DNA of 64,000 nucleotides from Nemophila menziesii (taxonomy: Eukaryota; Streptophyta; Magnoliopsida; Boraginales; Hydrophyllaceae). Position numbers and translations under genes: made by a program. Each line of letters starts with the position of its first letter. The stretch's first letter is position 1. The stretch covers positions 62,001 to 126,000 of the forward strand of contig JARWIR010000175.1 in NCBI GenBank assembly GCA_029959085.1, read 5' to 3'. Positions 19,476 to 64,000 of this stretch are shown piece after piece. Under the pieces are notes generated by a model, which was not told the origin of the DNA, ran no database searches, and saw nothing but the letters and a program-made list of their open reading frames with translations.

Positions 19476-19540
19476 TTCTTGTTTAGGAGAGTGAATTGGA
19501 TTATGTTTATTGTATAGGAGAATGGTTCTTTGATTATGTT

Positions 19541-43133: not shown

Positions 43134-44641
43134 TGGTGTCGCCTAAGGTGTGATAAAATAATAAATAAATAAATGCAAATAATCACCCTAGGCTGAGCAC
43201 GGTTTTGCAAGTATTACATGATGTATGCAAGTTTTAATGAATAAGTAAGATTCGTTCCTCAGAGACTACGAAGGTTAGGAAGAACTTATGCAAATATTCA
43301 AGTACATATATAAAAAGCTAGAATAATAATACAGAAGGAAATAGAAGACTAAAGAGATCTTTATTGGTTTTTAAATAGGAAAATTAAACTAAGAATTTAA
43401 AGACAGGAAATTAAATAAGAGAAAAGAACAGATAGTATGATCGTTTAGCCTGAGTAATTAGCAAGTAATCCCCACTAGTTTTGCCGTTCTAAACATGTAA
43501 GGGTGAATCATGTAGTATTTCAATGTTCGGTTTCAATTGCGCTAGGTAGTTTAAAATAGGGTTTACCTGTGTCAATAAGAACCTAAGAAAACTTTTCCTG
43601 CAATTGATTAAATGGCAATACACCAAACCATGATGACTATCTAGTTAAGTTGATTTGTCAGGTCTAAACCTTACACTAGACATTATGTGTTGTTTACAAT
43701 AATTAAATATGCCTTATCTATTGACTATCTAACTATTATTAAAGTAATCCTATACGGTTGCAATCCGCAAAGAGAACGGATTATAAATCAAACACATAGA
43801 CAAAGAAATAAAACATGAATTCAATTTAAAACATATAATTCCCAAATTAGATAGATGTCAATAAAAACTAGGGTTCATACCTATATGCTAAACTCAAGCT
43901 AAATTTATTTAATTCATACTAAGAAAAGAAAAGAAAACAATTACAGATTTGAAGGTTGAAGGAGACATAATTGATGCACAGCTCCTTCCAGACTTCGCTT
44001 CTTCCTGGCCTAAGGACTGGCCAAGGATGATTTTCTAATGATAAGAGGTTGTATTTATAGTGTATAGGAATACCTAATTCATTTCTTGGAGTATAAGGTA
44101 GGTTTTTGACTCCAAGCCCAACTCAAATTCGTAACCCTAGAATCTAGAAAAAGTAAAATTTTGAAGTTGTTTTGTTTTGGCCGTAACCGATTCAATACTT
44201 ATCCGTTAGACGCGTTTGAGTAGTCGAAATTCATCGTATCAGAAAGATTTTTAACTTTGATGTAGAATATTCTTCCAAATTCCTAGCTAATCTTGAGATA
44301 TAAGTCCATTTGTGGTCGTAGCTGCTGGAATTCAGATTTATTTGGCAACTTTATCTTTTTCTTTTTTCATAATTCTTGTCTTTATCTCCAATTTCCATGT
44401 TTATCCTCTTTCCTTTATCTCTTATAATTAACTTGGCCTCTAATTAATTACCATATATCTTTAAATCTACATACTAAATAAACAATTAAACCCAATATGC
44501 TCTAAAAATAATAAATAATTAATTCAAGACACAAAATATGAAAGTGTACTAAATCATGAGAAAATCGACCTATACTTTAATAAATACACCTAAAATGATG
44601 TCTCTAACTAATAATAAATCATCCCAAATGGGGAGACATCA
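43134..44641 (-). mobile_element. Athila-type 3' LTR on the minus strand, second copy
   Basis: Same 1508-bp LTR as 4275-5782 with the same junction to the HD-ZIP III unit and the same polypurine tract at 44642-44654. It arose by segmental duplication, not by a separate insertion. Confidence 0.75.
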
Positions 44642-44997
44642 AGACCCCCAACTCAAAGTTTATCGTCCCGATACAATAAAAATAAAAATAAAGAACAGTA
44701 GGGTAGACAAACAAGAAGAAGAAGTAGGAGGAGAATAAGATCAGAACACAATGAATGATCCTTGTGCAAAATATCTAAAAAGACTCATGTAGTAATGCTA
44801 AAAAAATAATGTACACGTATGCTTAATATACACATAATCAACAATCCATAAATTCAGGTCCAAATTAATTTCACAATGCCGGAAGAAGAGGTCTAAACTT
44901 AGTTCGGCCTAATGGCTATAGGTTGTTAATAGGTCCTAATATAGCATCCAATGGTCCACTTACTTACAACTTAATAACTCAATTGTTTCTCCATCAA
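44642..44997 (-). mobile_element. Polypurine tract and truncated Athila 3' internal end, second copy
   Basis: Counterpart of 5783-6138, cut at the identical base. Confidence 0.6.
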
Positions 44998-46417
44998 GCA
45001 GGTAGAAATCCAAAGATTTTTATGGTTATAACGGGGCTTAGGGATGGTGTGGTATATTTGCATAATGAAAAATGAGCTTTTGGCTCTCTCCTCACATTCC
45101 ATCAACGAATCGCCCTAGAGCTTGAGTTTTCACTCGAAGATGTTCTCACTCAACTCAATTTTTGATGCTTTTGATGTGCATCCCCAATAATCCAAAATAA
45201 AACCTTTTCATGATGATATACAAATTTCACTTTGCCGGTCCGAATATATATTCTTTTCATATTTAATTTTTTCTTTTGTATAGCTATGACTCTCTTTTTG
45301 ATGTTCGAGATATCACACTATTTTTTCAAAATATTTTTTTTCTTTCCAATTCATTATTTTCATCTTTTTTCATTCACTATTACCCCGACAAAGGGTTACA
45401 ATAATAACTTTTTCATCATCAATAAAATAAAAATTACCATTTCCCAAACCCAATGTTCCCTAATGATGAAACCCACCACCCCAAACTCAAGCTCTAAAAT
45501 GACTTGTGTCAGGTTTTGTGATTCGAGTGTGGGTCATATAAATAAGTCCTACAAACTAAGGGTATGGATTATAATATGGTTAAATAAAAGGCTTTAGAAA
45601 GGCTCAGAGGGGCTAAGACGGATAAATAATAACAATAATCAAATAAACGGGTGAGAAGGTATAAAAAGACTTCAAGTGGCTTCAATACGAAAGAACTGCC
45701 TTATTTATTTTTCTAACTACCGTATTTTGTTACTTTTTCACTACTAGTTCATAGGAAAGCGGGTTTTTCAACTAACTTCAAACCTCATGTTCTACACACC
45801 AAATAACTTTCCCTAAGTTTCAACGTAACTTCTTAGCATTGCTCATTAACTTTTCTATCTTTTATTTCGTGTTTACTTTCATGCATGCTAAACATATTTA
45901 TGACATCTTTCAAAAACATACTACGTACTATCAATGACCTATTAAAATCATACTCAAATAGGTACATTCAACATATTCTATGCCTATTTCAACCGGAAAT
46001 TTTTAAATTTTATGCAAATACAAAAAGGAAGATGAGGACAATGAATCCCCACCCCCAACTCAAAAGTGAGTCGTGTCCCCACGACTCGAAAAAGACTCAA
46101 TAAAGAAATAAAATTTAAAATTAGCACACATATTGCACATAAGAAAATGGTAGGGAAGAAAGAAAACATACTCTTCGAGGCTATAGCCTCGCCTTATCGA
46201 CATCGAAGATAGGATTTGCTGGATTTTCTTTAATTCCTCTAGCAGTGTTATGATGTACTCCTTTTCTTCTTTTGAAAGTTGCGTAATTACTCACAAAACT
46301 TTCATGATCCAATCATTGTCAATATTGTACTCATCTTAAACTCAAGTGCTTCTCCTTCACCCAAAATCATACTCGATTTCCGAACAAGACACGTGATCAT
46401 AGTAAGTTATTGTATAT
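44998..46417. other. Left flank of the Athila structure; dispersed-repeat sequence
   Basis: 45440-45900 is a diverged partner of 17400-17900. A 121-codon frame (45232-45597) is hydrophobic, Phe-rich and AT-driven, so it is not called. The last bases before the LTR are tgtatat (46411-46417); they do not match the bases after 61170 (gtttt), so no target-site duplication spans the whole inverted structure. Confidence 0.5.
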
Positions 46418-46463
46418 TGATGTCTCCCTAATTGTTCTTATTTTCGACCCTTGGGAGACATCA
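46418..46463 (+). repeat. LTR terminal hairpin (11-bp stem)
   Basis: TGATGTCTCCC at the very tip of the LTR is repeated inverted as GGGAGACATCA 24 bases later. In the minus element the eleventh pair is T-A instead of C-G: a compensated change. Confidence 0.85.
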
Positions 46464-46969
46464 TTTTTTATGTTTATTTGAATATTTTGATAGACTTTTG
46501 AGTTAAAAATGCAATAATCCGGTATTCCTATTTTATTTCTAGTATTTTTGATTTATTAAACTTTTGCACGTAATCTTGTGTATTTTAGTGAAAAGTTTGT
46601 AGGTTTTGAATATCAGCTAGGAAAGGAATCCTAGAAGAGAGTCAAAGATCGTGATATGGAGTCAAGGCTTGAAGATAAATCCCGAAAAAATTTCATTTTA
46701 GAGCTGCAAATCTGGAAAACAGGCCAAAGATTGCTGATTTCGAGGCACTTAAGTGATGGTTTAGCCGCTGACCTTTGAAGCAAATAAGTTCCTTATCGAG
46801 TTATGGAAATTTAGCAAGTGATTTCAGGTCAATCGGTGTTATAACGAATCGGCTAGATCCGTTTTAGTGGAGGTGGTGCAGCAGTTACGGGATTTTGGGC
46901 TTAGAAAATGGACTTGGGCTTTTAATTAGTGATTTAATTTTAAGCCCAAGGCCAAGTCTGAATTTTAGC

Positions 46970-46979
46970 TTATAAAAGG
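46970..46979 (+). promoter_or_regulatory. TATA box of the LTR promoter
   Basis: ttataaaagg in a GC-richer setting (gagctcctga follows). The same box is in the minus-strand LTR at 60611-60620. Transcription would begin about 30 bp downstream, placing U3 at ~580 bp and leaving a ~1-kb R-U5 part. Confidence 0.6.
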
Positions 46980-47992
46980 AGCTCCTGACTTCTATTTTTC
47001 ACACAATTCACTTTTTACGAAATAAAACATCAAGAGAGAAGAAGCATAAGGAAGAAGAAGAAGTTGTAGAGTTGGAGAGAGTCTATATCTCCATTCTCAG
47101 CCAAATCCAATTCCGGAAATTAGGTCTTTCTTATTTTTAATTCTGTAAAACAATATGAATTCCATTTCTTTTAATTTAGTTTTCTTTTTAATTAGTATGA
47201 GCTAATTTCTTTTAAGTACTTGAGAATGCTTTATGGGTGAATCCCGATTCTATTGAATTTCTATGTCTGAATTTGGGTTTCTATTAAATTAAATTAAATT
47301 GGGTCTTTTAATATTTTCGATAATTTGAGATTGTTTACTGTTTTTGGAGTCATGAACTAAGAACAGGTGTTAGTATCTAAGCTATTCCACATATGTGGCG
47401 TGTGGATCATCTTGACGGAGGGTTTAGGTACGGACTTATTTATTCAATCTAAAATAGAAGCTATTGACTCTGACGAGCTTAGTAAATTTTAGGGCCAATG
47501 TGGTAGAATTGCTTAATCATCTAAAAGTGGATCATATTTACCCTGACGGGACTAGTGACACTCTAGGATAGCCTTATAGTCCACCCTGACGGGGGTATAA
47601 GGAATTTAGAATCCCGGCCATTGTAATTGACCGATCTAACCCTTAAACAGCATATGTTATGAAATAGAATTAGGAGGATCCCTTGCGTTCTCAAGTGCTA
47701 CTTTTTTCATATTTGTGTTTCACATTCATTTCCTTGCGTTTTAGTATTTAATTGCATTCTCTTTATAGTCTTTCATTATTTAGATTTAATACAAACAAAC
47801 AATCAATCATTATCTCTTTACTTGCTTTCATAAGTGCAACCATTCATTATTCGATAAGCATTGTAGTTAACCAAACCGTCCCTGCGAACGATCCTAGAAT
47901 CATTATTACTACTTGGGACAACCGTACACTTGCGGTTATGGTTCAATTACCTTTTGCATTTATATAGAACACACAAATGACCACCAAGTTTT

Positions 47993-48010
47993 TGGCGCCG
48001 CTGCCGGGGA
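47993..48010 (+). other. Primer-binding site, tRNA-Asp type
   Basis: tggcgccgctgccgggga is complementary to the 3' end of plant tRNA-Asp (GUC), with one mismatch by my recollection of that tRNA. Asp-primed reverse transcription is typical of the Athila clade. It lies six bases after the LTR. Confidence 0.85.
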
Positions 48011-48122
48011 CGGTAGCGTGTGACAACGGTGTTTATCCTTTAGTGATAGTTGCATTTATTTTATTTTTATCAGTTTTACGCTTTTTGTTTGTTCATATTT
48101 TTCATGTTTTTAGGTTTGGTGT

Positions 48123-50390
48123 ATGCGAAGGAGGCTCTTTAAGGATCTAGAGCCATCACCTCCGATCCTTAATAATCCAGAATCATTAATCAGACTTGCT
48201 AACAAGAGAAGGAAAGAACAAGAAGCTAGAGAGGTAGAAGAGTTAATAAACAGAATGGAGAACATTAATCTTCAGAACCAACAAAACAATAACGGACAAG
48301 TTCAGCTGGACGCGAATGGCCAACCAATAGCGCCTTAGGGTGTTATTCCTCAGGTTCCGCCAGTCAATCCTAATCCGCCAGCTCAAGTCCAAATAGATCC
48401 ATGGTTTGTTAATGGACCAGAAGAGGTTCCATTCTGTGCTCCTGCTCTAGGGGTAGGTGCTCCAAACATAGATGTTCCAAGGTTTCGTCCAGATTCGGGT
48501 ATGTTAGCTCAATTCCAAAATTTTGGAAATTTTCGTGGTAAAGTTGAGGAAGATCCCATCCGAGCAGTACAAAATTTCAAGCAGATATGTGATTCTTATA
48601 TCACACAAGGAGTTTTGAAAGAACAAATGTATTTTGCTGTGTTTCGATTTTTCGTTATTGATGGAGCAAGTGAATGGCATGATACACAAGAACCTACGAA
48701 GATAACAAATTGGGACCAATTAGAAACTGCTTTCTTTGACAGGTATTACCCAAGTAACATGAGGTTAGATGATCAACTTGAATTAACACATTTCCGCCAA
48801 GAATATGATGAAACTTTGGGTAAGAGCTGGACAAGATTTCAGATGTGTTTACGTAGAGTTCCCGATCATGGCTTTTCAGAACAACAACAGCTAAAAATCT
48901 TTTATAAAGGCCTTGATGGGACTTCAAGAGAAAATTTAGATTTGCTATGTGGTGCGGGATTTCTTCAAGTTCAACCCGTTCATGCAAAAATCATCTTGGA
49001 AAGAACATTAAAGAATGAAGTTGGGTGGACTTCAGTAAGAACCCCGGTTAAAGGAGTGAATAAGGTTAATATCGAAGAAAATTTCGCTACACTTGAAAAC
49101 AAGATTCAAACCACCATAGAGCAACAATTGAAACAGCTCACTTTAGCTGTAAAAGAAGGATTTTCGGGTAAGAAGGTAGTTGTGCAAGCTGCACAAGAAG
49201 TTTATATGTGTTCAATTTGTGGGGTAGGTGATCATGATGAGGAAAGTTGTCCGAATAATCAAGAGCCTGTGATGTTTGTCTCCAACAGAGGTAACTTTAA
49301 TTCAAGTGGTAATGGATATCAGCCTAACAGAAACCATCCTGGGTTTCAATACTCAAATCCTAATGGGGAAGCCAATCCTACATATGCGTATAAGCCGCCT
49401 CCCCAAGGTAACAATTTCAATCCAAGACCACATAATAATTATCAAGGAGGACAGAATCAAGGGAATTATGTGCAAAGACAAGCTCCTCAAGACACTTACA
49501 ATGAAACCATGAACCAAAAAGCCTTACCTGTCCATCCACAAGAAGGTGTTGTAACCCTTCAGAAAACCGTTGAAAGCCTAATTGCTCTTCAGACGCAAGC
49601 TATGCAGAATCAACAAGCGTCTGACGCAAGTATCAAGCTATTACAGAACCAAATGGATCAATTTGCAAAACAGCTCAATCAGCGTCTACAAGGGCAACTC
49701 CCTACTGACACGGAAAATCCGAGACAACATGAAGATTGCACAGCTGGTACACTAAGAAGTGGTAAGAACCTCCCTCCACCTCCTTTTCCTGTTATGAAAG
49801 AGAAAGAAGTTCCAAGAAAAGAGAAGGATGTGGGTGAGAAAGAGAAAGATGTTGAGGTTGAAGAAATAGAAAGGCCAAGTGAGATTCCAAAGAAAAGAGA
49901 TGATGTTATGAGTAATCGCCCTCCTCCACCGTTTCCATCTCGAGTTCAGAAAAAGGGTGATTTGGCTGATTTTCAGAAGTTCTTTAATAGAGTGAAGGGC
50001 CTTAGTATTAACTTTCCGTTGTTGGAAGTTTTCCGAGATATTCCTAAGTATACGAAGTTTTTGAAGAGAGCCCTCACTAACAAAAGGCCATACTGTGATA
50101 ATGAGATGATTGGTCTTCCTGAAGAGTGTAGTGCTATTTGTCAAAGTAAATTACCTCCAAATTTAGTTGATCCTGGGAGTTTCACAATTCCGATATCGAT
50201 TGGGGAAGAATGGAAAGGTAAAGCACTACACGATTTGGGTGCGAGCATCAATCTGATGCCCAAATCGATCTTTGATAAGCTAAAAATTGGAGAAGCAAGA
50301 CAACTTCTATTGTCTTGCAAATGGCGGACAGATCTCTTGCACATCCAGAAGGCCGAATTGAAGATGTCCTCGTTAAGGCAGGTACGTTAA
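48123..50390 (+). pseudogene. Athila gag and protease start, plus element
   Basis: Gag packages the RNA; the protease cuts the polyprotein. From ATG 48123 the frame runs to a TAG at 48336-48338 and continues open in the same frame from there. Around residues 60-260 of the part after 48501 is the Retrotrans_gag domain (WHDTQEPTKI, FFDRYYPSN, RRVPDHGFSE). A CCHC zinc knuckle (C-x2-C-x4-H-x4-C) is at 49209-49250, followed by a Gln/Asn/Pro-rich linker. Near 50232 the protease active site reads DLGASINLMP, the Athila form. A 1-bp deletion near 50300 relative to the minus element shifts the frame, so this frame ends out of register at 50390. Codon use and protein character are clear despite the breaks. 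Confidence 0.9.
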
Positions 50391-52501
50391 TATTTCCCGT
50401 CGATTTCGTTATACTTGAATACGACGCGTTTAGGAATGTCCCCATTATTTTGGGAAGACCATTCCTAGCCACGGGGCGTACATTGATTGATGTAGAAAAC
50501 GGAAAATTGACGATGAGGATCCAAGACGAGGAGGTCAAATTTCATGTGTTCCGAGCTATGAAATTTCCAGATTCTCAAGAAGATTTCTTCCGAATGGATG
50601 TAGTTGAGCAGGCATCGCAAGAGGTATTTGATTGTTTTAATTATGATGATATCTTGTAGGCCGCTTTGACATTAGACTTACCTAAGATGATGGAAGAGCT
50701 TGCCGAAACAGTGGCAGCTCTTAATTCTGAAAATCCGAAGTATAGGCGTTTAGCCTATGAACCTGTGAGAGAACCGGGGGAGATCATTCCTAAGAAGAAG
50801 CCTTCAATTGAATCTCCTCCGGAATTGGAAGAAAAGCCATTGCCAGCACACTTGAGGTATGCGTATTTAGGTACTAATGAAACTCTACATGTTATTGTTT
50901 CAGCGAATTTAACAGGTCCTCAAGAAGATAAACTGTTGCGTGTGTTAAGAGCCAACAAAGAGGCAATAGGTTGGACAATTACTGACATCAAAGGCATTAG
51001 TCCCTCCTATTGTCAACACAAAATCATACTTGAAGATAACGCACGCTCAGTTGAAGGTCACAGGAGATTAATGCCCGTTATGAAGGATGTAGTGAAGAAG
51101 GAAGTTATCAAGCTTTTAGATGCGGGGATTATTTATCTCATCTCGAGTAGTGAATGGGTGAGCCCAGTTCAGTGTGTACCGAAGAAAGGAGGAATGACAA
51201 CAATTCTTAATGATAAAAATGAAGCGATTCCTTCTAGAATGGTAGTTGGTTGGAGAGTTTGCATGGATTACAGAAAATTGAACAAGGCCACAAGAAAAGA
51301 CCACTTCCCTCTTCCTTTCATCGATCAAATGTTAGATAAATTAGCTGGAAGAGAATACTACTGTTTCTTAGATGGTTACTCCGGGTGTAATCAGATTTAC
51401 GTGGCTCCAGAAGATCAACATAAGACTACATTTACATGTCCCTTTGGTACTTTTTCATATCGCAGAATGCCGTTTGGGTTGTGTAATGCACCTGCTACCT
51501 TTCAAAGATGTATTATGGACATCTTCTGGGATATGATCGATAATTTCCTTGAAGTTTTTATGGACGATTTCTCTATGTTTGGTGATGATTTTGATAAATG
51601 TTTAGATAACTTGGAGAGAGTGTTAATCAGATGCAAGGAAACAGATTTGGTCTTAAACTTGGAGAAGTGTCATTTCATGGTTCGAGAAGGTATAGTTCTG
51701 GGTCACAAGGTTTCGAGTGCTAGATTAGAGGTTGATAGAGCGAAGATAGAGGTAATTAAAACTCTTCTCCCTTCTGTTTCTGTTAAACGAGTAAGAAGTT
51801 TTCTAGGCCATGCTGGCTTTTATAGGCATTTCATCAAAGACTTTTCTAAGATTGCTAAACCGTTATGCAACTTACTCGAAAAGGATTCCAAATTCCTTTT
51901 TGATGAAGCTTGCTTAGCGGCCTTTCAAGCAATCAAAGAAAAGCTTATTTCTGCTCCTGTAGTATTACCTCCAGATTGGATTTTACCGTTTGAAGTTATG
52001 TGTGATGCGAGTGATTTGTGTATGGGAGCTGTATTGGGACAGAGAAAAGAGAAGATTTTTCATTCGATTTACTATGCTAGTAAAACTTTTAATGGTGCTC
52101 AAGTTAATTATACAGTTACAGAAAAAGAGTTGCTAGCAGTTGTGTATTCATTTGATAAGTCCCGCTCTTATCTTCTCGGAGCGAAAGTGATAGTTTATAC
52201 AGATCATTCAACAATTAGATATCTTATGGAAAAGAAGGATGCCAAACCAAGGTTAATCAGCTGGGTTTTATTGCTTCAAGAGTTCGATTTAGAGATCAAG
52301 GATAGAAAGGGTTGTGAGAATCAGGTTGCAGATCATCTATCGTGTCTTGAAGGTTCAGAGATGAATAGTGGTACTGAAAGAGTTAGAGAAGAGTTTCCTG
52401 ATGAGAATTTGTTTGTTGTTCGTGATTATGAAGCTCCTTGGTATGCAGATATAGCGAATTTAGTGGTGAGTGGTTCTTTTCCTGAAGGATCCACTTACTA
52501 A
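50315..52501 (+). pseudogene. Athila protease end, reverse transcriptase and RNase H, plus element
   Basis: Continues the polyprotein after the frameshift. The protease C-terminus ([15 protein letters not shown], near 50450) is followed by a TAG at 50657-50659 where the minus element has CAG. The reverse transcriptase spans about 51020-51850, with [30 protein letters not shown] and the catalytic FMDD box (51557-51568) intact. RNase H (51990-52350) keeps [14 protein letters not shown] and YTDHS. A TAA at 52499-52501 ends the frame just before the integrase linker. The enzyme residues look preserved, so this element was probably competent not long before the stops arose. Confidence 0.92.
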
Positions 52502-53743
52502 GAAAGAAAGAGGTTAGCTCATCGTGCTAGACAATTCTTTTGGGAGGATCCTTTCCTCTACAAGGTGTGTGCTGACCAAATGATACGAAGATGTGTAGCC
52601 AAGGAGGAAACTGATGCCATTATAGCTGGATGTCATGATTCTCTATATGGAGGACATTTCAAGGGTGATAGAACTGCTGCTAAGGTATTCCAATCAGGTT
52701 TTTACTGGCCTACTCTTGTTAAAGATTGTCATGAATATGTTAAGAGATGTACAAGATGCCAGTTTACCGGAAACATATTCAAGAGGGATGAGATGCCACG
52801 TAATAATGTATTAGAAGTTGAAATATTTGATGTTTGGGGTATAGACTTTATGGATCCTTTCATTCCTTCAAATGGTAACCTCTACATCTTATTAGCTGTC
52901 GATTACGTGTCAAAATGGGTAGAAGCTGTGGCTTTACCAACCAATGATTCACGAGTGGTGATTAAGTTCTTGAAATCACATATTTTCACTAGACATGGTA
53001 CACCTAGAGTGATTATTAGTGATGGAGAATCTCATTTCGTTAATAAGTATTTGAAGGCTGTTCTAGAGAAGTATGGAGTAAGACACCGTGTATCTACTGC
53101 ATATCATCCACAATCCAATGGTCAAGCTGAAGTATCGAATCGTGAAGTGAAGTCAATCCTAGAGAAAACCGTTGGTCCTACAAGAAAAGATTGGTCAATG
53201 AAGTTAGATGATGCGTTATGGGCCTATCGTACTGCGTTTAAGACTCCAGTTGGTGCATCTCCGTATCGTATGGTGTATGGTAAGGCTTGTAACTTACCTC
53301 TTGCTTTAGAAATGGGTGCCTATTGGGCGATTGCGCAATTGAACTTAGATCCTACCTTAGCCGGAGTGAATCGTATGATGAAGCTTAATGAACTTGACGA
53401 ATTCCGATTGAATGCCTATGAAAATGCTAAACTCTACAAAGAAAACACGAAGAAATGGAATGACAATCGGATTCGCACAAAGAACTTTGAAGTGGGACAA
53501 AGAGTATTGAAGTATAATTCAAAGTTCAGCAATTATCCGGGTAAGTTAAGGTCTAAGTGGTCAGGTCCATACATTGTGACCAAAGTTACACCTCATGGGG
53601 CGATAAAAATAGAACATCCACTAGAGAACCGTACCTTCATGGTAAACGGTCATAGATTAAAGATATACCATGGAGGTGAAGACACCAACCGATTGGAAGA
53701 TCCACAACCCGGGGAGGTCATGTATCTCCTCGAGACTCCTTAG
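52502..53743 (+). pseudogene. Athila integrase, plus element
   Basis: Same frame as the reverse transcriptase part, beyond the TAA. The HHCC zinc domain (H at [10 protein letters not shown] at RCTRC) lies at 52630-52760. The rve core has D in GIDFMDPF (about 52845), D in SDGESHF (about 53020; SDGGSHF is the common form) and E in [11 protein letters not shown] (about 53125). The C-terminal part ([16 protein letters not shown], then [10 protein letters not shown]) is typical of gypsy integrases without a chromodomain. The stop codon is at 53741-53743. The catalytic triad is complete; only the upstream stops prevent production of a full polyprotein. Confidence 0.92.
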
Positions 53744-54805
53744 AAGCGTGAGGTAACCCGTCGAGCTTAACGACGTTAAACAAAAGCCAATTCCTTGTAT
53801 ATTAGTTTGAGTTTTTAATTTTCGCAATGTACAATAGTTTGATTTTCATAATTTTAGTGTTTATTATTAAGAAATGAGGAAGGGTAGTTGTTTTTGATGA
53901 TTTCAGGGGTAAAAATGTCGTGTTTGGGGTCGAAAGGGCAAAAAGAGAAGAAAAAATAGGTGATGTTCCAGGGGCAAACCGGGAACCCGGTTTTCACAAA
54001 ACCGGGAATCCGGTTTCGAAAGCCAAAAATTTCGAGGTTCTGACACAGCTTTTTGGGTCCCGCCATCCGCTGCGTCACCACCTGCGTCACCAGTTACGCC
54101 ATCGACGAAAACCGGGTACCCGCATTTCTCAAAACCGGAAACCCGGTTTTGGAGCTGTAATTTTTCAAACTTCTCTGACCCAGCGTTTCGGGTCTAGCCT
54201 TTGGCTGCGTCTTGGCTCGCGCCAGCGACACAAACTAGGTACCCGGATTTCGCAAAACCGGGAACCCGGTTTCGAAGGTTGAAGTTCTGACCCCGCGTCT
54301 TGGGGTCCAGCCAAAAGTTGTGTGTTGAGGTAAAAAAAAATCAATTAAGTTATTTTCCGCGCCAACACAGCGACGCGGAACCGGGTACCCGGATTTCAAA
54401 AAACCGGGAACCCGGTTTTGAAGCTGTGATGGCGGTTTTGAGTGTTTTAACCTAGTTTCTAGCCTCTTCTGCAAGTTTTTACCTAAAACGCACCCACGAC
54501 TACCCCACCTCTGAAAATCATCATTAAAACCTATAAATACCATCTTATTCTACCCTCTTTCATCACAAAAACACAAAATCAACTCACCTCTTCTCCAAAA
54601 TAACATCAAATCCTTAATTTTTCCCAAGATATTTCTTCACCCAATCCTTAAATTAAACCCAATTCTTTCTTTTCCCACACAAGTTAAACAAGACCCATCT
54701 CATATTCCACCTTGATCTTCAATTTTCTAAGACTCAAAACATCAAAGTTCTAAACTTTTCTCTAGTTTCTCACTATTTGAAGTTTTGAGTTTGGGGTGGA
54801 AAGAG
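53744..54805 (+). mobile_element. Untranslated region between integrase and third frame
   Basis: About 1 kb without a supported frame. 53970-54425 is the palindrome array described separately. After it comes a C-rich, leader-like stretch with many ctcatcttc-type strings up to the ATG at 54806. The open frames reported across this part (for example 53920-54282 and the minus frame 54235-54543) follow the palindromes and are not genes. Confidence 0.6.
53970..54425. repeat. Four ~130-bp units, each with a pair of CCGGG-x-CCCGG palindromes
   Basis: Eight near-palindromes of the type AAACCGGGAACCCGGTTT or AACCGGGTACCCGGATTT, centred near 53985, 54007, 54116, 54141, 54242, 54263, 54387 and 54410. 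They come in pairs 21-25 bp apart; pairs repeat every 126-145 bp with related spacer sequence (gttctgac, ttgggtc, agcc). The block is markedly GC-richer than its surroundings. Confidence 0.9.
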
Positions 54806-55649
54806 ATGACTAATAGAACCGGTGATTTCCGAAGAACTGCTCCTAGAAAGAAAACCACCATTGGTGGTACTAAAGAACAAGCTAATGAGATTCCTGATTC
54901 GCGTCCTAAACGAAAAATTGATGAAGTTAAGCTTTCTCCCAAGAGAAAAGAAATCACAAGTCAAAAGAGAAGATTAATTGATGAGCCTGAAAGTGAGGAT
55001 GAACATGAAGATGTGATTGAGAAAGAAATTGAGGATGAAACAGAACAAGAAGTTCCGGAAGTACCAGCTCAACAGAAACCCCCACGGAAGAAGATGTGGG
55101 CCCATAAGCCAAAGAGGGTTTATACTTCTTGGAATGACCAGGTTCGTGAAAGAATTGAATTTTTGAAGTTTGGTGAGGAGACGGATTTTCCTAAGGGTAT
55201 TATGAGTAGTGCTCACAAAGAATATGTTGTGGTTTGTGACAAGTTTGGTTGGAAAGAATTGAGAGAAAGGAAGCTTGAGTTTATTCCTACTTTTGTGCGA
55301 GAATTTTATGAAGGATTAACTATTTCCCGTGAGGCAATTGAAATTCGCAAAAAGGTAGTTCCTCTCTCTCTGGTTAATTTATTCGGAAATCTTTGAAATT
55401 ACCCAACTTTACTGGAGTATGTCTGTTCCAAGAAACCCTTAGTGACCCTTCTTTCGATTATTAATCCCTTTGGGGTATTGTGCTTGTTAATGGGGCTAGC
55501 CCAATTCCTGATGGAGAAAGGTATCCTGGACAGTTTTACAGCAGTAGTTTGACACCTCGTGCAAAGGTTTGGTCTCGTTTCATAATACCTACTTTCTTTG
55601 GAATTAAACACACATCCGAGTTGAAGAAGGAACATATAATTTTCATCAA
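54806..55649 (+). pseudogene. Third Athila reading frame, plant transposon protein domain, truncated
   Basis: A frame downstream of pol, where Athila elements often carry an extra ORF. The first ATG is 54806. The N-terminal ~100 residues are rich in Lys/Arg and Glu (RRTAPRKKTT, RPKRKIDEVK) and look disordered with nuclear-signal-like clusters. Then come WNDQVRERIEF, FVREFYEGL and RKKVVPLSLVNLFGNL, and the frame stops at 55394-55396. After a frame change, 55480-55649 reads GERYPGQFYSSSLTPRAKVW and SRFIIPTFFGIKHTSELKKE. The FYE-L, V-LS-x-x-INxLFG, LTP-AKVW order fits the putative plant transposon protein domain (PF20167-like). It is cut at the junction with the minus element. Function is unknown; I see no membrane segment, so I do not call it envelope-like. 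Confidence 0.7.
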
Positions 55650-55656
55650 TCTGGAG
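55640..55656. other. Junction between the two inverted Athila elements
   Basis: Left of about 55649 the sequence continues the third frame of the plus element. To the right, caatctggaggtaat is the reverse complement of the plus element's own ccagattg boundary at 51971-51978. So the minus element is cut within its RNase H start, and the 3' parts of both elements, including both 3' LTRs, are missing. Confidence 0.85.
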
Positions 55657-56774
55657 GTAATACTATAGGAGTTGAAATAAGCTTTTCTTTGATTGCTTTG
55701 AAGGCCGCTAAACAAGCTTCATCAAAACGGAATTTGGAATCCTTTTCGAGTAAGTTGCATAACGGTTTAGCAATCTTAGAAAAGTCTTTGATAAATCGCC
55801 TATAAAAGCCAGCATGGCCAAGAAAACTTCTTACCCCTTTAACAGAAACAGGAGGGGGAAGATTTTTAATTACCTCTATCTTGGCTCTATCGACCTCTAA
55901 TCCAGCACTCGAAACTTTGTGACCCAGAACAATACCTTCTCGAACCATGAAATGACACTTTCTCCAGATTATCTAAACATTTATAAAAATCATCACCAAA
56001 TACCGAGAAATCATATATAAACACTTCAAGAAAGTTATCGATCATATCCCAGAAGATAGCCATCATACATCTTTGAAAGGTAGCAGGAGCATTACACAAC
56101 CCAAATGACATTCTGCGATATGCAAACGTACCAAAGGGGCATGTAAATGTTGTTTTATGTTGATCTTCCGGAGCCACGTAAATTTGATTATACCCAGAAT
56201 AGCCATCCAAGAAGCAATAGTACTCTCTTCCGGCTAATTTGTCTAACATTTGATCAATGAAGGGCAAAGGAAAGTGATCTTTTCTGGTGGCCTTGTTCAG
56301 CTTTCTGTAATCCATGCAAACTCTCCATCCAACTACCATTCTTGAAGGAATCGCTTCATTTTTATCATTAAGAACTGTTGTCATTCCTCCTTTCTTCGTT
56401 ACACACTGAACCGGACTCACCCATTCACTACTCGAGATGGGATAAATAATCCCCACATCTAAAAGCTTGATCACCTCTTTCTTCACTTCATCCTTCATAA
56501 CGGGCATTAATCTTCTTTGACCTTCAACTGAGCATGCGTTAACATCTTCAAGTATAATTTTGTGTTGACAATAGGATGGACTAATGCCTTTGATGTCAGC
56601 AATTGTCCAACCTATTGCTTCTTTGTTGGCTCTTAACACACGCAACAGCTTATCTTCTTGAGGACCTGTTAAATTAGCTGAAACAATAACAGGTAGAGTT
56701 TCATTAGTACCTAAATACGCATACCTCAAGTGTGCTGGTAACGGTTTTTTTTTCCAATTCCGGAGGAGATTCAA
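55649..56774 (-). pseudogene. Athila reverse transcriptase, minus element, truncated
   Basis: Matches plus-strand 50830-51978. The frame 56774-55887 covers the N-terminal RT with [11 protein letters not shown] intact. The catalytic box reads FIYD instead of FMDD (near 56008-56022), so the first metal-binding Asp is lost. A ~47-bp deletion near 55955, between two short ttggaga repeats present in the plus element, removes part of the palm and shifts the frame to 55948-55649. The sequence ends before the RNase H active site. It is entered from the previous part by a 1-bp gain in an A run near 56750. Confidence 0.9.
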
Positions 56775-57225
56775 TTGAAGGCTTCTTTTTAGGAATAATC
56801 TCCCCCGGTTCTCTCACAGGTTCATAGGCAAGACGCCTATACTTGGGATTTTCAGAATTTAGAGTTGCCACTGTTTCAGCAAGCTCTTCCATCATCTCAG
56901 GTGAATCTAATGTCAAAGCGGCCTGCAAGATATCATCAAAATTTAAGCAATTAAATACCTCTTGCGATGCCTGCTCAACTACATCCATTCTGAAGCAATC
57001 TTCCTAAGAATCTGGGAATTTCATAGCTCGAAATACATTGAATTTGACTTCCTCGTCTTGTATCCTCATCGTTAATTCGCCATTCTCTACATCAATCAAA
57101 GTACGCCCCGTGGCTAGAAATGGTCTACCCAAAATGATTGGGACATTCCTATCCGCGTCGTATTCAAGTATTACGAAATCAACGGGAAATATAAGTGTAC
57201 CTGCCTTAACGAGGACATCTTCAAT
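56704..57225 (-). pseudogene. Athila protease end and linker, minus element
   Basis: Counterpart of 50330-50860. Same frame as the gag part upstream. It holds a TAG near 57006 where the plus element has CAA, and runs out of frame at the A run near 56750. The protease end ([15 protein letters not shown]) is readable on the minus strand near 57100-57150. The plus-strand frame 57038-57442 is its shadow. Confidence 0.85.
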
Positions 57226-58440
57226 TCAGCCTTCAGGATGTGCAAGAGACCTGTCCGCCATTTGCAAGACCATAGAGGTAGGTCTTGCTTCTCCAATTTT
57301 TAGCTTATCGAAGATTGATTTGGGCATCAAATTAATGCTTGCACCCAAATCGCATTGTGCTTTTCCTTTCCATTCTTCTCCAATCGATATCGGAATCGTG
57401 AAACTCCCAGGATCAACTAACTTTGGAGGTAATTTACTTTGACAAATCGCACTACACTCTTCAGGAAGACCAATCATCTCATTATCACAATAAGGTCTTT
57501 TATTAGTGAGGGCCCTCTTCAAAAACTTCGTGTACTTAGGAATATCTCGAATGGCCTCTAGTAACGGAATATTAATACTTAAGCCCTTCACTCTATTAAA
57601 GAATTTCTGAAAGTCAGCCAAGTCACCCTTTTTCTGAACTCGCGATGGAAACGGTGGTGGAGGGCGATTACTAACAATATCTTTCTTCTTTGGAATCTCA
57701 CTTGGCCTCACTATTTCTTCAACTTCACTATCTTTTTCTTTCTCTTTCTCACCCACTTCCTTTTCTTTTCTTTGAACTTCTTTCTCTTTCATAACGGGAA
57801 AAGGAGGTGGAGGAAGGTTCTTACCACTTCTTAATGTAACAACTTTGCAATCTTCATGTTGTCTCGGATTTTCGGTGTCACTAGGGAGTTGCCCTTGTGG
57901 ACGCTGATTAAGCTGTTTTGCAAATTGCTCCATTTGATTCTGTATTAATTTCATATTTGCTTCAGACGCTTGTTGACGTTCCATAGCTTGTGTTTGAAGA
58001 ACAATTAAACTTTCAACGGTTTTCTGAAGTGTAACTACTCCTTCTTGTGGATGGGCAGGTATGGCTTTTTGGTTCAATGTTTCATCGTAAGTATTCTGAG
58101 GAGCTTGTCTTTGTACATAATTACCCTGGTTCTACCCTCCTTGATAATTGTTGTGTGGTCTTGGATTGTAATTGTTACCTTGGGGACGCGGCTGATACGC
58201 ATATGTAGGATTGGCTGCCCCATTCGGATTTGAGTATTGAAACCCAGGATGGTTTCTGTTAGGCTGATATCCATTACCACTTGAATTGAAGTTACCTCTA
58301 TTGGACACAAACATAACAGGCTCTTGGTTATTCGGACAACTTTCCTCATCATGATCATCTACCCTACAAATCGAACACATATAGACCTCTTGTGCATCTT
58401 GCACAGCTACCTTCTTACCCGAAAATCCTTCTTTTACAGC
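57226..58440 (-). pseudogene. Athila gag C-terminal part and protease start, minus element
   Basis: Includes the zinc knuckle (CSICRVDDHDEESC, 58340-58385), the Gln/Asn/Pro-rich linker, and the protease site CDLGASINLMP. Stops: TAG at 58132-58134 (plus element CAG) and TGA at 57226-57228 (plus element CGA), both explained by C-to-T change. The 1-bp deletion seen in the plus element near 50300 is absent here, so the two copies decayed separately. Confidence 0.88.
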
Positions 58441-59466
58441 TTAAGTAAGCTGTTTCAACTGTTGCTCTATAGTAGTCTGAATCTTATTCTCAAGCGTAGC
58501 AAATTTTTCTTCGATATTCACATTATTCACTCCTTTAACCGGTGTTCTTACTGAAGTCCACCCAACTTCATTCTTGACTGTTCTTTCCAAACTGATTTTG
58601 GCATGAACGGGTTGAACTTGAAGAAAACCTGCACCACATAACAAATCCAACTTCTCTCTTGAGGTCCCATCAAGGCCTTTGTAAAATATTTGTAGTTGTT
58701 GTTGTTCTGTAAAGCCATGATCGGGAACCCTTCGTAAACACATCTGAAATCTTGTCCAACTCTTACCCAAAGTTTCATCATACTCTTGACAGAAATGCGT
58801 TAACTCAAGTTGATCATCTAACCTCATGTTACTTGGGTAATTCCTGTCAAAGAAAGCAGTTTCTAATTGGTCCCAGTTTGTTATCTTCGTAGGATCTTGT
58901 GTATCGTGCCATTCACTTGCTCTATCAATGACAAAAAATCGAAACGCAGCAAAATACAGTTGTTCTCTTGAAACCCCTTGTGTGATGTAGGAATCACATA
59001 TCTGCTTAAATTTCTGTACAGCTCGGATAGGATCTTCTTCTGGTCTACCACGAAAATTTCCAAAATTTTGGAATTGAGCTAACATACCCGAATCTGGACG
59101 AAATCTTGGAACATTTATATCTGGAGCACCTACTCCTAGAGCAGGAGCACGAAATGGAGCTTCTGGTGGACCGTTAAGAAACCATGGATCTTGATGCATC
59201 ACTATCTGAACTTGAGGATTAGGATTCAGTGGTTGAACTTGAGGAATAATGCCAGGTGGCGCTAAAGGTTGGACATTTGCATCTAGTTGACCTTGTCCAT
59301 TATTTTGTTGATTCAAAAGATTGATATTCTCCATTCTGTTAACTAATTATTCTACTTCTAAAGCTTCTTGTTCTCTCCTTCTCTTGTTAGCAAGTCTGAT
59401 CAACGATTCCGGATTATTAAGGATCGGAGGTGTTGGCTCTAGATCCTTGAATAGCCTTCTTCGCAT
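58441..59466 (-). pseudogene. Athila gag N-terminal part, minus element
   Basis: Starts at the ATG at 59466 with the same first residues (MRRRLFKDLEP) as the plus element. A TAA at 59347-59349 interrupts it; the frame re-opens at 59334 and carries the Retrotrans_gag domain (WHDTQDPTKI, RRVPDHGFTE) to a TAA at 58441-58443 (TTA in the plus element). Amino-acid differences from the plus copy are scattered throughout, so these are two separate family members. Confidence 0.88.
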
Positions 59467-59577
59467 ACACCAAACCTAAGAACCTGAAAAGAAATGAACA
59501 AACAAAAAGCGTAAAACTGAAATAAAAATAAATACAACTATCACTAAAGGAATAAACACCGTGGTCACACGCTACCG

Positions 59578-59595
59578 TCCCCGGCAGCGGCGCCA
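59578..59595 (-). other. Primer-binding site, tRNA-Asp type, minus element
   Basis: Reverse complement reads tggcgccgctgccgggga, identical to the site at 47993-48010. Confidence 0.85.
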
Positions 59596-60610
59596 AAAAC
59601 TTGGTGGTCCTTTGTGTGTTCTAAAAATAATGCAATAAATAATCGAACCACAACCGCAAGTGTACGGTTGTCCCAAGTAATATAGTTGATAAAACAGATT
59701 CGTTCCAAGGACGGGATGGTTGACTACAATGCTTATCCACTAATGAATGATTGCACTTATGAAAGCAAATAAAGATAATATGTTTGATTGGTTTTTTTTG
59801 TATTAATGCTAAGTAATAAAAGACTAAATGGAAAATGCAATTAAAAGTTAAGACGCAAGTAAAATGATGTAAAACGCAAGTATGAGAAGATAGCACTTGA
59901 GAACGCAAGGGGTCATCCTAATCCTATTTCATAACCTATGCTGTTTAAGGGTTAAATTGGTCAATTACGATGGTCGGGATTCTAAATTCCTTATACCCCC
60001 GCCAGGGTGGACTATAAGGCGATCCTAGAGTGTCACTAGTCCCGTCAGGGTAAATATGATCCACTTTTGGATGTTTAAGTTTTATTACCTCATTGGCCCT
60101 AGAATTAGCTAAGTTCGTCAGAATCAATAGCTTCTATCCTAGATTGAATAAATGGTTCTGTACCTAAACCCTTCGTCAGGATGATCCAATTGCCACTAAT
60201 TGGAATAGCCTAGATACTAACACCTGTTCCTAGTTCATGACACTAAAAAAAGTAAATATTCTCAATTTATCGAAAAGGTTAAAAGACACAATCTAATTTA
60301 ATTTAACAGAAACCCAAATTCAACATATGAAATTCAATAAGATTTGGGAATTACCCATATAGCATTCTCAAGCGCTAAAATGTGTTTAGCTCATATTAAT
60401 TGAAAACAAAACTAAATTAAATAAAAGGGAATTCATATTGTTTTACAAAATTAAAGATAAAAGAACCTAATTTCCGGAATAAGAATGACTGCGAACGGAG
60501 ATATAGACCCTCTCCAGCTCTTGCAGCTTCTTCTTTCTTCCTTCTGTTGCTTCTCTCTGGTGTTTAATCTTGTGGAATGTGAATTGTTTTGAAAATAGAA
60601 GTCAAAGGCT

Positions 60611-60620
60611 CCTTTTATAA
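60611..60620 (-). promoter_or_regulatory. TATA box of the minus-strand LTR
   Basis: ttataaaagg on the minus strand, same position within the LTR as 46970-46979. Transcription would run left toward the junction. Confidence 0.6.
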
Positions 60621-61124
60621 GTGTAAAAACGGATTAGGGCTTGGACCTAAGAATAAAACACTAATTAATTGTCCAAGCCCAAATTCTAAGCTCAAAATCC
60701 CGTAAATGCTGATACACCTTCACTAAAACGGCTTTTCCCGCTTCGTTAAGACTCCGATTGACCTAATTCCAGTTGCTAAAGTTCCGTAACTCGATAAGGA
60801 ATGTTTTCTCTTCAAAGGTCAGCGGCTAAATCATCTCTTAAGCACCTCGAAATCAGCAATCTATGGCCTGAAAAACGGATTTTCATTTCTAAGAATGATA
60901 TCTTCGGGATTTATTTCAAGTCTTGACTCCATATCATGATCTTTGACTTTATCCTTGGATTCCTCTTCTAGCTAACATCCAAAACCTGTAAACTTTTCAC
61001 TAAAAATACCAATATTACGCGCAAAAGCTTGATAAATTAAAAATGCTAGAAATAAAAGAGGAAAATTGTATTATTGCATATTTAGTCCAAAAGTCTATCA
61101 AATTAATTAAATAAACACCAAAAA

Positions 61125-61170
61125 TGATGTCTCCTAAGGGTCGAAAATAAGAACAATTAAGGAGACATCA
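61125..61170 (-). repeat. LTR terminal hairpin, minus element
   Basis: TGATGTCTCCT and AGGAGACATCA at the two ends of a 46-bp segment. The terminal pair of the stem differs from the plus LTR in both arms. Confidence 0.85.
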
Positions 61171-61326
61171 GTTTTCAACATTTATTTTTTCTTTTCTTTT
61201 TTGTTCAGAAATATTTCAACTTTTCTGGTTGTGTACTTTTTTTTAATCTTAACTTTATTATTTTATTTTGTAAGGTTATATTAGGTATATTATATAAGTG
61301 TAAAATAATACTTTAAAAGACTAGAC
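61171..61326. repeat. Dispersed repeat, partner of 19541-19697
   Basis: Starts directly at the Athila LTR tip and ends directly at a short LTR. See 19541-19697. Confidence 0.85.
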
Positions 61327-61479
61327 TGTTATAAACCCACTGGATATTCATTCCACCGTAGTCAAGCCCATGAACACTAGGGTTAGGTTTACCTATTCAC
61401 TATAAATAGAACTATTTACTATGTAATCCAACACTTTTTCAGATACTCAATACAATCTCTATTCTCTCTGTTTATAACA
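61327..61479 (+). mobile_element. Short copia-type LTR (153 bp)
   Basis: Begins TGTTATAA and ends TTATAACA, a perfect 8-bp inverted pair. It contains a TATA-like ctataaatag (about 61403) and is followed by cacgttatcagca, a string seen after the 5' LTR of many plant copia elements. The left edge is confirmed by the unoccupied repeat copy at 19697 (tggac then ttcatattt). No second LTR is visible in the window, so this is either the 5' end of a longer or miniature (TRIM-like) element or a remnant. Confidence 0.65.
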
Positions 61480-64000
61480 CGTTATCAATAACACGTTATC
61501 AGCATGATAGCCTCTACCATTTAAGAGCTAATTAATTTTTTTAATCTTATAATATACCCGATCGTATTGTCTTATGTTTACATTTTATACAAGACAAATA
61601 ATTAGATCCTCTGATCTAAAGCAATTCATTAAAGAATGATCTAAAGCAATTCATTAAAGAACGATATTATTTGATTTTAATATACACGTTCTATCAATCA
61701 TCAAATATACTTTGATGAATTTCTTTTTTTTATTGAATAATAAAATAAAGTAGTGATCTTTTGATCTATTCGATAAACAATTAGCTGATGAAATCCGACT
61801 AGAATTATCATCAGTACTGTACGAAAATGATAGCTCTGTTAAAGCTACTAGTCTTTATGTGATGGACCTTACAGTATCTATTCACCATGTTTTTTATTCT
61901 CCAGTGGATAATATTTATGGGATGTAAATGAGAAAAAAAGACTATATTTTATATGTGTTTGCGTGAAAATCTGATGAACTCGTTAACAAAAATCCCAACA
62001 AGGTTCATTGGTTGCGCCTAATAGTCTCATAAAGGAACCAATTGGGTTAATGATTCAAAGCTTACCATATATTATTAACACATAAAAATAGCTGTTGCAC
62101 GAGATATCAAGGGATTAGATGTTATAGAATATTTAATAACAAAAGATCCTTTATAATCTATTTGATCATTTGCCATTTTTTAATTGGCCGCTATTTTTAT
62201 ATACGGAATTGACTTTCATTGAATAATGGATGAAGTAGGAATTATTTGATGTATTTGGCCAGAATAATTAAAAAAAGAAAGAAATACTTTGCATAATTGT
62301 TTTTTTCAACATAAATGCATAACTGATAGCATAATTTATGCATGTTCTGGTTTTTTTTTTAATTTAAGCCAAAGCAACTGAATTTTTTTTCTTCTTTCGA
62401 CATATATAAAATAAAGACCTCATATTTTGTATAGAGACATCATAGAAGGTTTAAAATATTAATTGCTTTATATATTTTGTTTTGGTCGACCATTCAATTG
62501 AATTCAATTTTTTTAATTTTTAATAATAAATCTTACTAAAGAAAAACAACATAGCAGGCGGTAGAAAAGTTTTAACCTAAAAAAAAAAAGAAAAAAAAGA
62601 GATTTAAAAAAAAAACCCCATTTTTTATCTTTTTCTTCTTTCTTAATTTAATTAAAAAAATTCAAATTTTACAATTTTTTTTCTTAACGATTTTTTTTTA
62701 TACCTAATGATATTCATATATCAATATTAAATAATATATGTATACATTACTAGTATATATATTTTATATTTGCATTATATGATATATAACATAACCTATG
62801 AGAAGGATGTATGGAAAAAATAGAGTGTATACACAAGTTGTGTACGTATTTTATGCATATCTGCTGATATAGCATAACCTATAATGATGAAAAAAAATTA
62901 TTAGACATAACTTTATGTAACTTATGCAAACACATAAATGTCAATTTGAGATTGTGTTTCGGTTAACAAATGAAACGAAATATAGGGTAATTAAAGATAT
63001 ATTTTATGCGCATATATCGCATAACCTATCAATTAACTCGTTTTCATTCATATAACCTCAGAAATTAAATATATTTATCCGATCTTCAAGCTTCTAAAGC
63101 AAATGTCGATACTAATATAAGGATTTAGAAAAGTTTGTATTGTACTTCAAATATTTACATTTATCCAAAATTCAAATGATGTATGATAATGGGAATTATG
63201 TATAAAGTTCTTGAAGAACCAAAAATAATACTTTTTGAAGGAATATAATTCAATTAGAGTTTTTTACTCTTGTGGAATTTTTACTCTACAAAATTTTAGA
63301 GATTAAATTGTTATTGTGATCCTATGTGAAATCATAAACAAAATAATACAGATCACTATCGCTTACATTTGGTAACGTATCACTGGTTTTTTTATCCTTG
63401 CCAATATCATCATCTGTATTTTTTTTGATGATATAAATATTAGTGAAAATTCACAAGTGAAAAAAAAATTAAAGATCTAGATGATCAAATACATATTATC
63501 AATCTGGATATGTCCAAACAAAAATTTGTGTCCCAAATCATTTTGATATTAAATCATCTATTTTTTTTATTACGAAATCAAGGGATATATACGAGTCTAG
63601 AAACTTAACTATTGAATCTTCTATGACGAAATGATATGACCATTTCTCATAATAAATACTCCCTATTGGTCAAAGACCAACAACAAAAAAAATTATTTCA
63701 TCAAAATATCCTAACTGCTTAATTTACGTTACAATTGCTCCACCACCGCGCAAAAGGATGGAATCTGAGAATACATGTTATTTAAGTTATTCTCTGGATT
63801 AGGGAGATTTAAAAAGAATATCCGGAATATAAGAATACGCCATTTATATTGATCCTCGTACAATCATACAAATAAAAATATTGTAAAGGTGTAGTAATTA
63901 AGTCACAATATCCAGTTATCAATGCTCTTGATTAAATTTATGTCTCAAAAGAGCTATCTTATAAAATTAGACTATTGTACGCTTAAAGCGCAATAGATCA
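61480..64000. other. AT-rich stretch after the short LTR, no gene recognised
   Basis: 61613-61661 is a 25-bp tandem pair (gatctaaagcaattcattaa). gcataacctat recurs near 62785, 62870 and 63010. No copia gag or pol motif was found, so this is not a readable internal region. Long A and T runs dominate 62340-62700. Confidence 0.5.

What the first reader, a model, noticed from the sequence alone, without database searches (positions are those of the whole stretch)
46418..61170. Two Athila elements fused tail to tail form a ~5.5-kb inverted repeat with both LTR promoters pointing inward
Seen: both 5' LTRs (1569 bp each), primer sites, gag, protease and RT are present in opposite orientation, with the junction at about 55649. 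The 3' parts of both, including both 3' LTRs, are gone. Scattered amino-acid differences and different stops show two separate family members joined later, not a recent fold-back copy. Known: inverted-repeat loci such as Mu killer in maize make long hairpin RNA and silence a whole transposon family. Inference: a transcript from either LTR that passes the junction could fold over LTR, gag and RT and feed siRNA production against intact relatives.
Basis: partly seen in the sequence, partly recalled or inferred. Interest (0 to 1): 0.75.

Follow-up and report, generated by a model that had tools for sequence, protein, structure and literature searches.

The report
Two decayed plant retrotransposons fused tail-to-tail
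Two old, broken copies of a plant retrotransposon sit tail to tail and form a long imperfect mirror-image repeat; the shape is real and could make double-stranded RNA if transcribed, but it looks like an ordinary relic and nothing seen here shows that it silences anything.

Summary
Element A (46418-55646, +) and element B (55647-61170, -) are Athila-type Ty3/gypsy copies, complete at the 5' end and cut at the 3' end, that meet inside their bodies. The arms (46418-51978 and 55647-61170) align over 5499 ungapped columns at 87.9% identity; each LTR is 1569 bp, and the two are 82% identical. Separate family members are well supported: differences fall mainly on third codon positions and dN/dS is 0.09-0.13. 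The 5-bp flanks outside the two LTRs differ (TATAT, GTTTT), which argues against one integration of an inverted dimer and for two insertions followed by a deletion. The silencing idea is possible but untested. An RNA with both arms would pair, and both LTRs keep a TATA-like box at the same aligned place, but the arms are far from Mu killer's perfect hairpin (497 of 5566 21-column windows mismatch-free). Convergent transcription would make double-stranded RNA without a hairpin. No RNA, methylation or whole-genome data could be reached. Most likely this is a silenced relic: a new example of a known kind, of modest interest.

The parts
46418..47986 (+). 5' LTR of element A, TG...CA, 1569 bp
46971..46976 (+). 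TATA-like box in LTR A (LTR position 554), same aligned place in LTR B
47993..48010 (+). primer binding site of A (tRNA-Asp type by recall)
48339..50387 (+). A: gag and presumed protease, open piece (48501-50387 was scanned)
   Evidence: (PF03732)
50660..52498 (+). A: reverse transcriptase and RNase H, open piece (50666-52498 was scanned)
   Evidence: (PF00078, PF17917, PF17919)
52502..53740 (+). A: integrase, open piece (52565-53740 was scanned); no chromodomain hit
   Evidence: PF17921, PF00665
53975..54430 (+). A: diverged internal repeats between integrase and the extra ORF
54731..55393 (+). A: extra ORF piece after integrase; no homologue at E<=0.001 among 177 candidates
55465..55646 (+). 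A: continuation of the extra ORF in another frame, weak PF20167 match running to the junction
51979..55646 (+). spacer (loop) between the arms, present only in A
55646..55647 (.). junction of A and B
55890..56813 (-). B: reverse transcriptase, open piece (55890-56774 was scanned)
   Evidence: PF00078
57229..58131 (-). B: counterpart of A's gag end and presumed protease, open piece; no Pfam hit for 57229-58077
58444..59346 (-). B: gag, open piece (58444-59334 was scanned)
   Evidence: PF03732
59578..59595 (-). primer binding site of B
59602..61170 (-). 5' LTR of element B, 1569 bp
60614..60619 (-). TATA-like box in LTR B (LTR position 552)
46413..46417 (+). 5 bp outside LTR A (TATAT), presumed remaining target-site copy of A
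61171..61175 (+). 5 bp outside LTR B (GTTTT), presumed remaining target-site copy of B
61171..61327 (+). flank repeat, 93% identical to 19547-19703, homology starting exactly at the LTR edge

Best explanation
Two members of one Athila-type Ty3/gypsy family inserted independently, in opposite orientation, near each other. A later deletion with end-joining fused the extra ORF of A (+) to the RT/RNase H region of B (-), removing both 3' ends, both 3' LTRs and whatever lay between. What remains is an inverted repeat with broken genes, arms of about 5.5 kb and a spacer of about 3.7 kb. Its most likely present state is that of any old Athila copy: methylated and mostly silent. If it is transcribed, RNA holding both arms, or two opposing RNAs, would form double-stranded RNA for Dicer-like enzymes. 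Shown: anatomy, separate ancestry, unlike outer flanks, interrupted frames. Inferred: two integrations plus a deletion (from the flanks and the cut genes), silent state (general knowledge of the family, not measured), dsRNA potential (from pairing alone).
For: Arms and LTRs complete at the 5' ends in opposite orientation. dN/dS 0.13 (gag side), 0.09 and 0.12 (two pol stretches), differences by codon position 30/36/118, 8/3/26 and 22/11/69; four wrong-frame controls on two of the three stretches give ratios of 1.3-1.9. Outer 5-mers TATAT and GTTTT agree at 2 of 5 places. The right flank matches 19547-19703 from exactly the LTR edge; the last 400 bp of the left flank match nothing in 17500-19546 better than shuffles do. 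The weak PF20167 match in A stops at the junction at profile position 129 of 177, so A's gene seems cut there. The open pieces of both copies are separated by stops and frame changes. Longest mismatch-free run 64 columns, so no recent conversion is seen. A hint that both flanks come from one kind of host segment: 45334-45843 in the left flank matches 17316-17783 in two collinear pieces (64% and 62%), upstream of the 19547 match of the right flank.
Against: No intact relative or empty site could be examined: the genome search did not complete seven times. Target-site copies beside the lost 3' LTRs cannot be checked. Five-base flanks can mutate, so 2 of 5 is not proof. The 17.3-19.7 kb comparison is uneven (62-64% left, 93% right), so the flank pair may be two unrelated repeats. 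A nested insertion of B into A with A's remainder beyond 64000 is not fully excluded. The silence of the locus was not measured.
Confidence: 0.72

Rival explanations
1. Mu killer-like silencing locus: a Pol II transcript from either inward LTR reads through both arms, folds into a hairpin and is diced to siRNAs that silence intact relatives in trans.
For: Opposed arms with a TATA-like box at the same aligned place in both LTRs; arm:arm duplex with 75% of perfect energy summed over 14 sampled segments, each far below its shuffled-partner mean; precedents Muk (PMC2563033, passages) and, as an untested proposal, an EVD antisense nested insertion (PMC11624286, passages).
Against: No RNA or siRNA data. 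Arms differ at 665 of 5499 ungapped columns; 497 of 5566 21-column windows are mismatch-free, against a perfect 2.4-kb hairpin in Muk. LTRs are the least alike part (82%). By coordinates a transcript must run about 8.6-8.7 kb from either TATA-like box before any stem can form. Active relatives are unknown.
Confidence: 0.12
2. Convergent transcription: RNAs started in both LTRs overlap on opposite strands and anneal, giving perfectly paired dsRNA over arms and spacer alike, without a hairpin.
For: Both 5' LTRs face inward and no further LTR match of 150 bp or more lies between them. The same alternative was stated for the EVD antisense pair (PMC11624286, passages), and overlapping sense and antisense transcripts were one of three models for Athila6 siRNAs (PMC3276544, passages).
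Against: No transcription data. Athila6 21-22-nt siRNAs were reported in ddm1 and met1, and siRNA854 also in pollen, where silencing is lost, and were not detected in wild-type seedlings, roots, leaves or inflorescences (PMC3276544, passages).
Confidence: 0.08
3. A nested insertion: B entered A, B's 3' half and part of A were then deleted, and A's remainder lies right of the window.
For: B lies where A's 3' part should be; the window ends 2.8 kb to the right, so a distant remainder is not excluded.
Against: 61171-61327 matches 19547-19703, far from any Athila part; the search of 61171-64000 against the window found no match to an element; G+C is 0.254 in 62001-64000 against 0.39-0.41 in the element bodies, though the LTRs are also A+T-rich.
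Confidence: 0.06
4. One integration of an inverted heterodimer cDNA made by strand switching between two co-packaged RNAs.
For: Would explain two outward-lying complete LTR ends and one internal junction in a single step (inference).
Against: Outer flanks TATAT and GTTTT match at 2 of 5; the left side of the flank repeat at 19547 does not match the 400 bp left of A.
Confidence: 0.03
5. Assembly artefact joining two loci at 55647.
For: Athila copies are repetitive (general knowledge); no reads were available.
Against: The join is not at a shared repeat: left of it 5 of 20 bases fit the other arm.
Confidence: 0.06

Closest known systems
Mu killer (Muk) of maize, an inverted duplication of part of MuDR
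   Same: Transposon sequence in inverted repeat; potential long hairpin transcript.
   Different: Muk's hairpin is perfect over 2.4 kb and is reported to yield siRNAs and heritable silencing (PMC2563033, passages); here two diverged retrotransposon copies, 88% alike, with a 3.7-kb spacer and no RNA evidence.
EVD antisense nested insertion in an Arabidopsis rdr6-EVD line
   Same: LTR retrotransposon copies in opposite orientation with LTRs placed to give hairpins or convergent transcripts; the authors say they did not test whether it became an siRNA source (PMC11624286, passages).
   Different: New insertion, nested, of an active element (Ty1/copia by recall); here Ty3/gypsy, decayed, truncated, tail to tail.
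Athila lineage of plant Ty3/gypsy retrotransposons
   Same: Gag-RT-RH-INT order, no chromodomain or second RNase H found, extra ORF after integrase.
   Different: Not an intact element but two truncated ones fused.

Membership tests
Athila lineage (non-chromovirus OTA, Ty3/gypsy) | gag, RT, RNase H, integrase in this order | tested here: met
   A: PF03732, PF00078, PF17917/PF17919, PF17921, PF00665 in order. Protease only by a homologue with PF13650.
Athila lineage (non-chromovirus OTA, Ty3/gypsy) | no chromodomain after integrase (none found outside chromoviruses, PMC6317226, passages) | tested here: met
   No chromodomain among Pfam hits of the integrase piece 52565-53740 at E<=0.01. Chromodomains were found in 94% of chromoviruses, so absence is not decisive.
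Athila lineage (non-chromovirus OTA, Ty3/gypsy) | no second RNase H (aRH), which marks Tat and in angiosperm Tat lies between RH and INT (PMC6317226, passages) | tested here: met
   None among Pfam hits; about 105 residues lie between the RH and integrase matches. The 66 bases between the two scanned pieces (52499-52564) were not scanned.
Athila lineage (non-chromovirus OTA, Ty3/gypsy) | RT-RH-INT phylogeny inside Athila | not tested
   No named Athila or Tat reference proteins were fetched; the names in the list of 120 homologues are general.
Athila lineage (non-chromovirus OTA, Ty3/gypsy) | primer site for a non-Met tRNA (PMC6317226, passages) | tested here: inconclusive
   TGGCGCCGCTGCCGGGGA in both copies; the tRNA-Asp assignment is from recall.
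Athila lineage (non-chromovirus OTA, Ty3/gypsy) | extra ORF 3' of integrase; Athila ORF-1 domain in 16% of elements (PMC6317226, passages) | tested here: inconclusive
   Forward ORF piece present; PF03078 not among the hits, PF20167 only at E 0.0061, below its cut-off.
Mu killer-like silencing locus | transposon inverted duplication transcribed across both arms | tested here: inconclusive
   Inverted arms met; promoter only as a TATA-like box; transcription not testable.
Mu killer-like silencing locus | perfect long hairpin as in Muk | tested here: not met
   87.9% identity, longest mismatch-free run 64 columns; 497 of 5566 21-column windows mismatch-free, 54.5% with at most 2 mismatches.
Mu killer-like silencing locus | siRNAs and trans-silencing of relatives | not testable with these tools
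   No RNA, small RNA or methylation data.

The most novel reading that the evidence does not exclude
A two-lineage silencing hairpin: because the arms come from two sublineages that diverged while active (LTRs 18% different), one transcript would give siRNAs matching two branches of the family at once, and the mismatches would make the output mixed in size class.
Probability: 0.06. Interest if true: 0.55.

Novelty: new member of a known kind. Interest (0 to 1): 0.27.

Why it matters
Opposed retrotransposon copies are a proposed source of the first double-stranded RNA in transposon silencing; in the one plant LTR case read here the authors left siRNA output untested (PMC11624286, passages). This locus has a spacer that only one element carries, so the hairpin and convergent-transcription routes make different predictions there. 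As it stands it illustrates ordinary decay by deletion between neighbouring insertions.

Tried and rejected
Recent fold-back copy of one element: rejected by dN/dS 0.09-0.13, third-position excess and the lack of long identical tracts. Single integration of a dimer: disfavoured by unlike outer 5-mers. Relatives in other records: an IMG/VR scan with integrase matched 5 stretches, none a relative; the extra ORF had no homologue at E<=0.001 among 177 candidates; RT gave 7964 proteins, of which the best 120 were listed, at up to 73% identity, the organisms named there being plants and many rows having no name; gag gave 17 of 3105 candidates. The host plant was not identified. Rfam: no match at gathering score. 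ARAGORN (bacterial settings): no tRNA. Host genes: 9 of the 14 ORF pieces of 90 or more residues outside the elements were scanned and none reached a Pfam cut-off. Microhomology at the junction could not be judged, because A's sequence past the junction is unknown. A paper on a tail-to-tail Athila pair was not seen among the titles and abstract starts listed (20 of 40 papers; 7; 4; 1; 20 of 61; 2; 1; 0); that library lacks most subscription papers.

Full report
What is there. Blastn of the window on itself finds one long inverted match, 55647-61178 against 51978-46410, 5599 columns at 86.9% (hits of 150 bp or more at E<=1e-10 were listed); the repeat finder splits the same match into 15 pairs of 77-95% (40000-64000). 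Cut at the LTR edges, the arms 46418-51978 (5561 bp) and 55647-61170 (5524 bp) align over 5499 ungapped columns at 87.9%, with K2P 0.133. Both LTRs measure 1569 bp and end ACCACCA; A's starts TGATGTCTCC and B's TGATGTCTCC read on its own strand. They are 82.2% identical over 1563 columns, K2P 0.205, against 0.106 for the internal part. Both primer sites read TGGCGCCGCTGCCGGGGA; that this fits tRNA-Asp is recalled, not tested.

Coding content. Seven open pieces were scanned with Pfam at E<=0.01. A has gag (PF03732), RT (PF00078), RNase H (PF17917, PF17919) and integrase (PF17921, PF00665); B has gag and RT. Two of the seven gave no family (54785-55393 and 57229-58077). The protease is inferred from a Coffea protein with PF13650 and PF03732 that aligns over 93% of A's gag-side piece at 30%. 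Past integrase A carries diverged internal repeats at 53975-54430 and an extra ORF. Its piece 55465-55650 matches PF20167 weakly (E 0.0061, 16.9 bits against a cut-off of 45), reaching profile position 129 of 177 at the junction. The comparison with a Primulina protein is equally weak (24% over 41 residues, E 7e-4 for the single comparison); the larger ORF piece gave E 0.23 with it, only a chance-level Pfam match, and no homologue in the large protein set.

Family. No chromodomain and no second RNase H were found. In the survey of Neumann et al. (PMC6317226, passages read) chromodomains occur in 94% of chromoviruses and in no other group, and a second RNase H marks Tat, lying between RNase H and integrase in angiosperms; about 105 residues lie there in A. 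By that key the elements are Athila. I built no tree with named Athila and Tat references, so the label is by architecture. PF03078, found in 16% of Athila elements, was not hit.

Separate members, not a fold-back copy. In A's frames the differences between arms fall by codon position 30/36/118 (gag side, 628 codons), 8/3/26 (124 codons) and 22/11/69 (421 codons). dN/dS is 0.13, 0.09 and 0.12 (dS 0.38, 0.41, 0.31). Four wrong-frame controls, on the first and third stretches, give 1.3-1.9. The first two stretches overlap by 106 bases in different frames. Twenty gapped codons were left out of the counts, and four codons with stops in B out of the ratios. A copy made after the elements died would show no such bias. 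dS exceeds the LTR distance (0.20); I do not explain this. Identity in 300-column bins runs from 0.78 to 0.94 and the longest mismatch-free run is 64 columns, so recent conversion between arms is not seen. CpG sites differ by a transition at 54 places and agree at 93, which is compatible with decay under methylation, but no control was run.

How it formed. The 5 bases outside LTR A are TATAT, outside LTR B GTTTT; 2 of 5 agree. The right flank 61171-61327 is 93% identical to 19547-19703, beginning exactly at the LTR edge. The 400 bp left of A score no better against 17500-19546 than shuffles do (22 against a mean of 26 and a maximum of 35 in 20 shuffles). Further left, 45334-45843 matches 17316-17783 in two collinear pieces (64%, E 3e-16; 62%, E 1e-4). 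If that relation is real, A and B entered one kind of host segment near each other and the host DNA between them is gone; but the unequal identities (62-64% and 93%) allow two unrelated repeats. All this fits two insertions at different sites, then a deletion that joined A's extra ORF to B's RT/RNase H region. Left of 55647, 5 of 20 bases fit the other arm. Nested insertion with A's remainder beyond the window is the main structural rival: 61171-64000 matched no part of either element, and 62001-64000 has G+C 0.254, but the window ends at 64000.

What it may do. A TATA-like box stands at LTR position 554 in A and 552 in B, in identical aligned surroundings of 12 columns; a second such match in A (position 1544) is not shared, and the AATAAA motifs (604 in A; 256 and 1085 in B) are at different places. 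No chance expectation was computed. In 14 segments of 200 columns (2800 of 5586) the arm:arm RNA duplex has 75% of the energy of a perfect duplex when summed; the arms give -219 to -344 kcal/mol against means of -45 to -71 with five base-shuffled partners each. Of 5566 21-column windows 497 are mismatch-free and 54.5% have at most two mismatches, gaps counted as mismatches. So an RNA holding both arms would fold, with many interruptions. By coordinates a transcript from A must pass 55647, and one from B must pass the spacer down to 51978, about 8.6-8.7 kb from the TATA-like boxes, before any stem forms.

Comparison with the literature. Muk's transcript forms a perfect 2.4-kb hairpin processed to siRNAs that silence MuDR (PMC2563033, passages). 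An antisense nested EVD pair was proposed to give LTR hairpins or convergent dsRNA, and the authors say they did not test whether it became an siRNA source (PMC11624286, passages). For Athila6, 21-22-nt siRNAs depend on RDR6 and go with loss of silencing (met1, ddm1; siRNA854 also in pollen); fold-back, overlapping antisense transcripts and miRNA triggering were the three models (PMC3276544, passages). Initiation of Muk-induced silencing is reported not to need RDR2 (PMC2725412, passages). The idea is therefore known; this locus is an untested candidate.

Limits. The window's own genome could not be searched: seven identical requests did not complete. The host is not identified. No reads, RNA, siRNA or methylation data were available. 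Verdict: a real structure, ordinary in origin, with a testable but unsupported silencing role.

Noticed in passing
1-6138 and 38848-44997: Direct duplication of about 6.1 kb at 96% identity, ending about 1.4 kb left of element A; more alike than the two elements are.
   Followed up: no
32931-36335 and 36226-39599: Tandem direct duplication of about 3.4 kb at 89%, sharing a stretch of about 670 bp with 3309-3983 and 42156-42830.
   Followed up: no
6148-10822 and 11943-21618: A further diverged direct duplication in pieces (76-86%), with extra sequence in the second copy.
   Followed up: no
45334-45843 and 17316-17783: Weak collinear match (62-64%) of the left flank of element A to sequence about 1.8-2.2 kb upstream of the copy of the right flank at 19547.
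   Followed up: partly
61337-61520: Next to LTR B, a stretch starting near TGTTATAAACCCA and reaching a doubled ATAACACGTTATCA (TRF 61474-61501) looks, from recall, like a Ty1/copia LTR end and primer region.
   Followed up: no
53975-54430: Diverged repeats, direct and short inverted, between integrase and the extra ORF of element A.
   Followed up: partly
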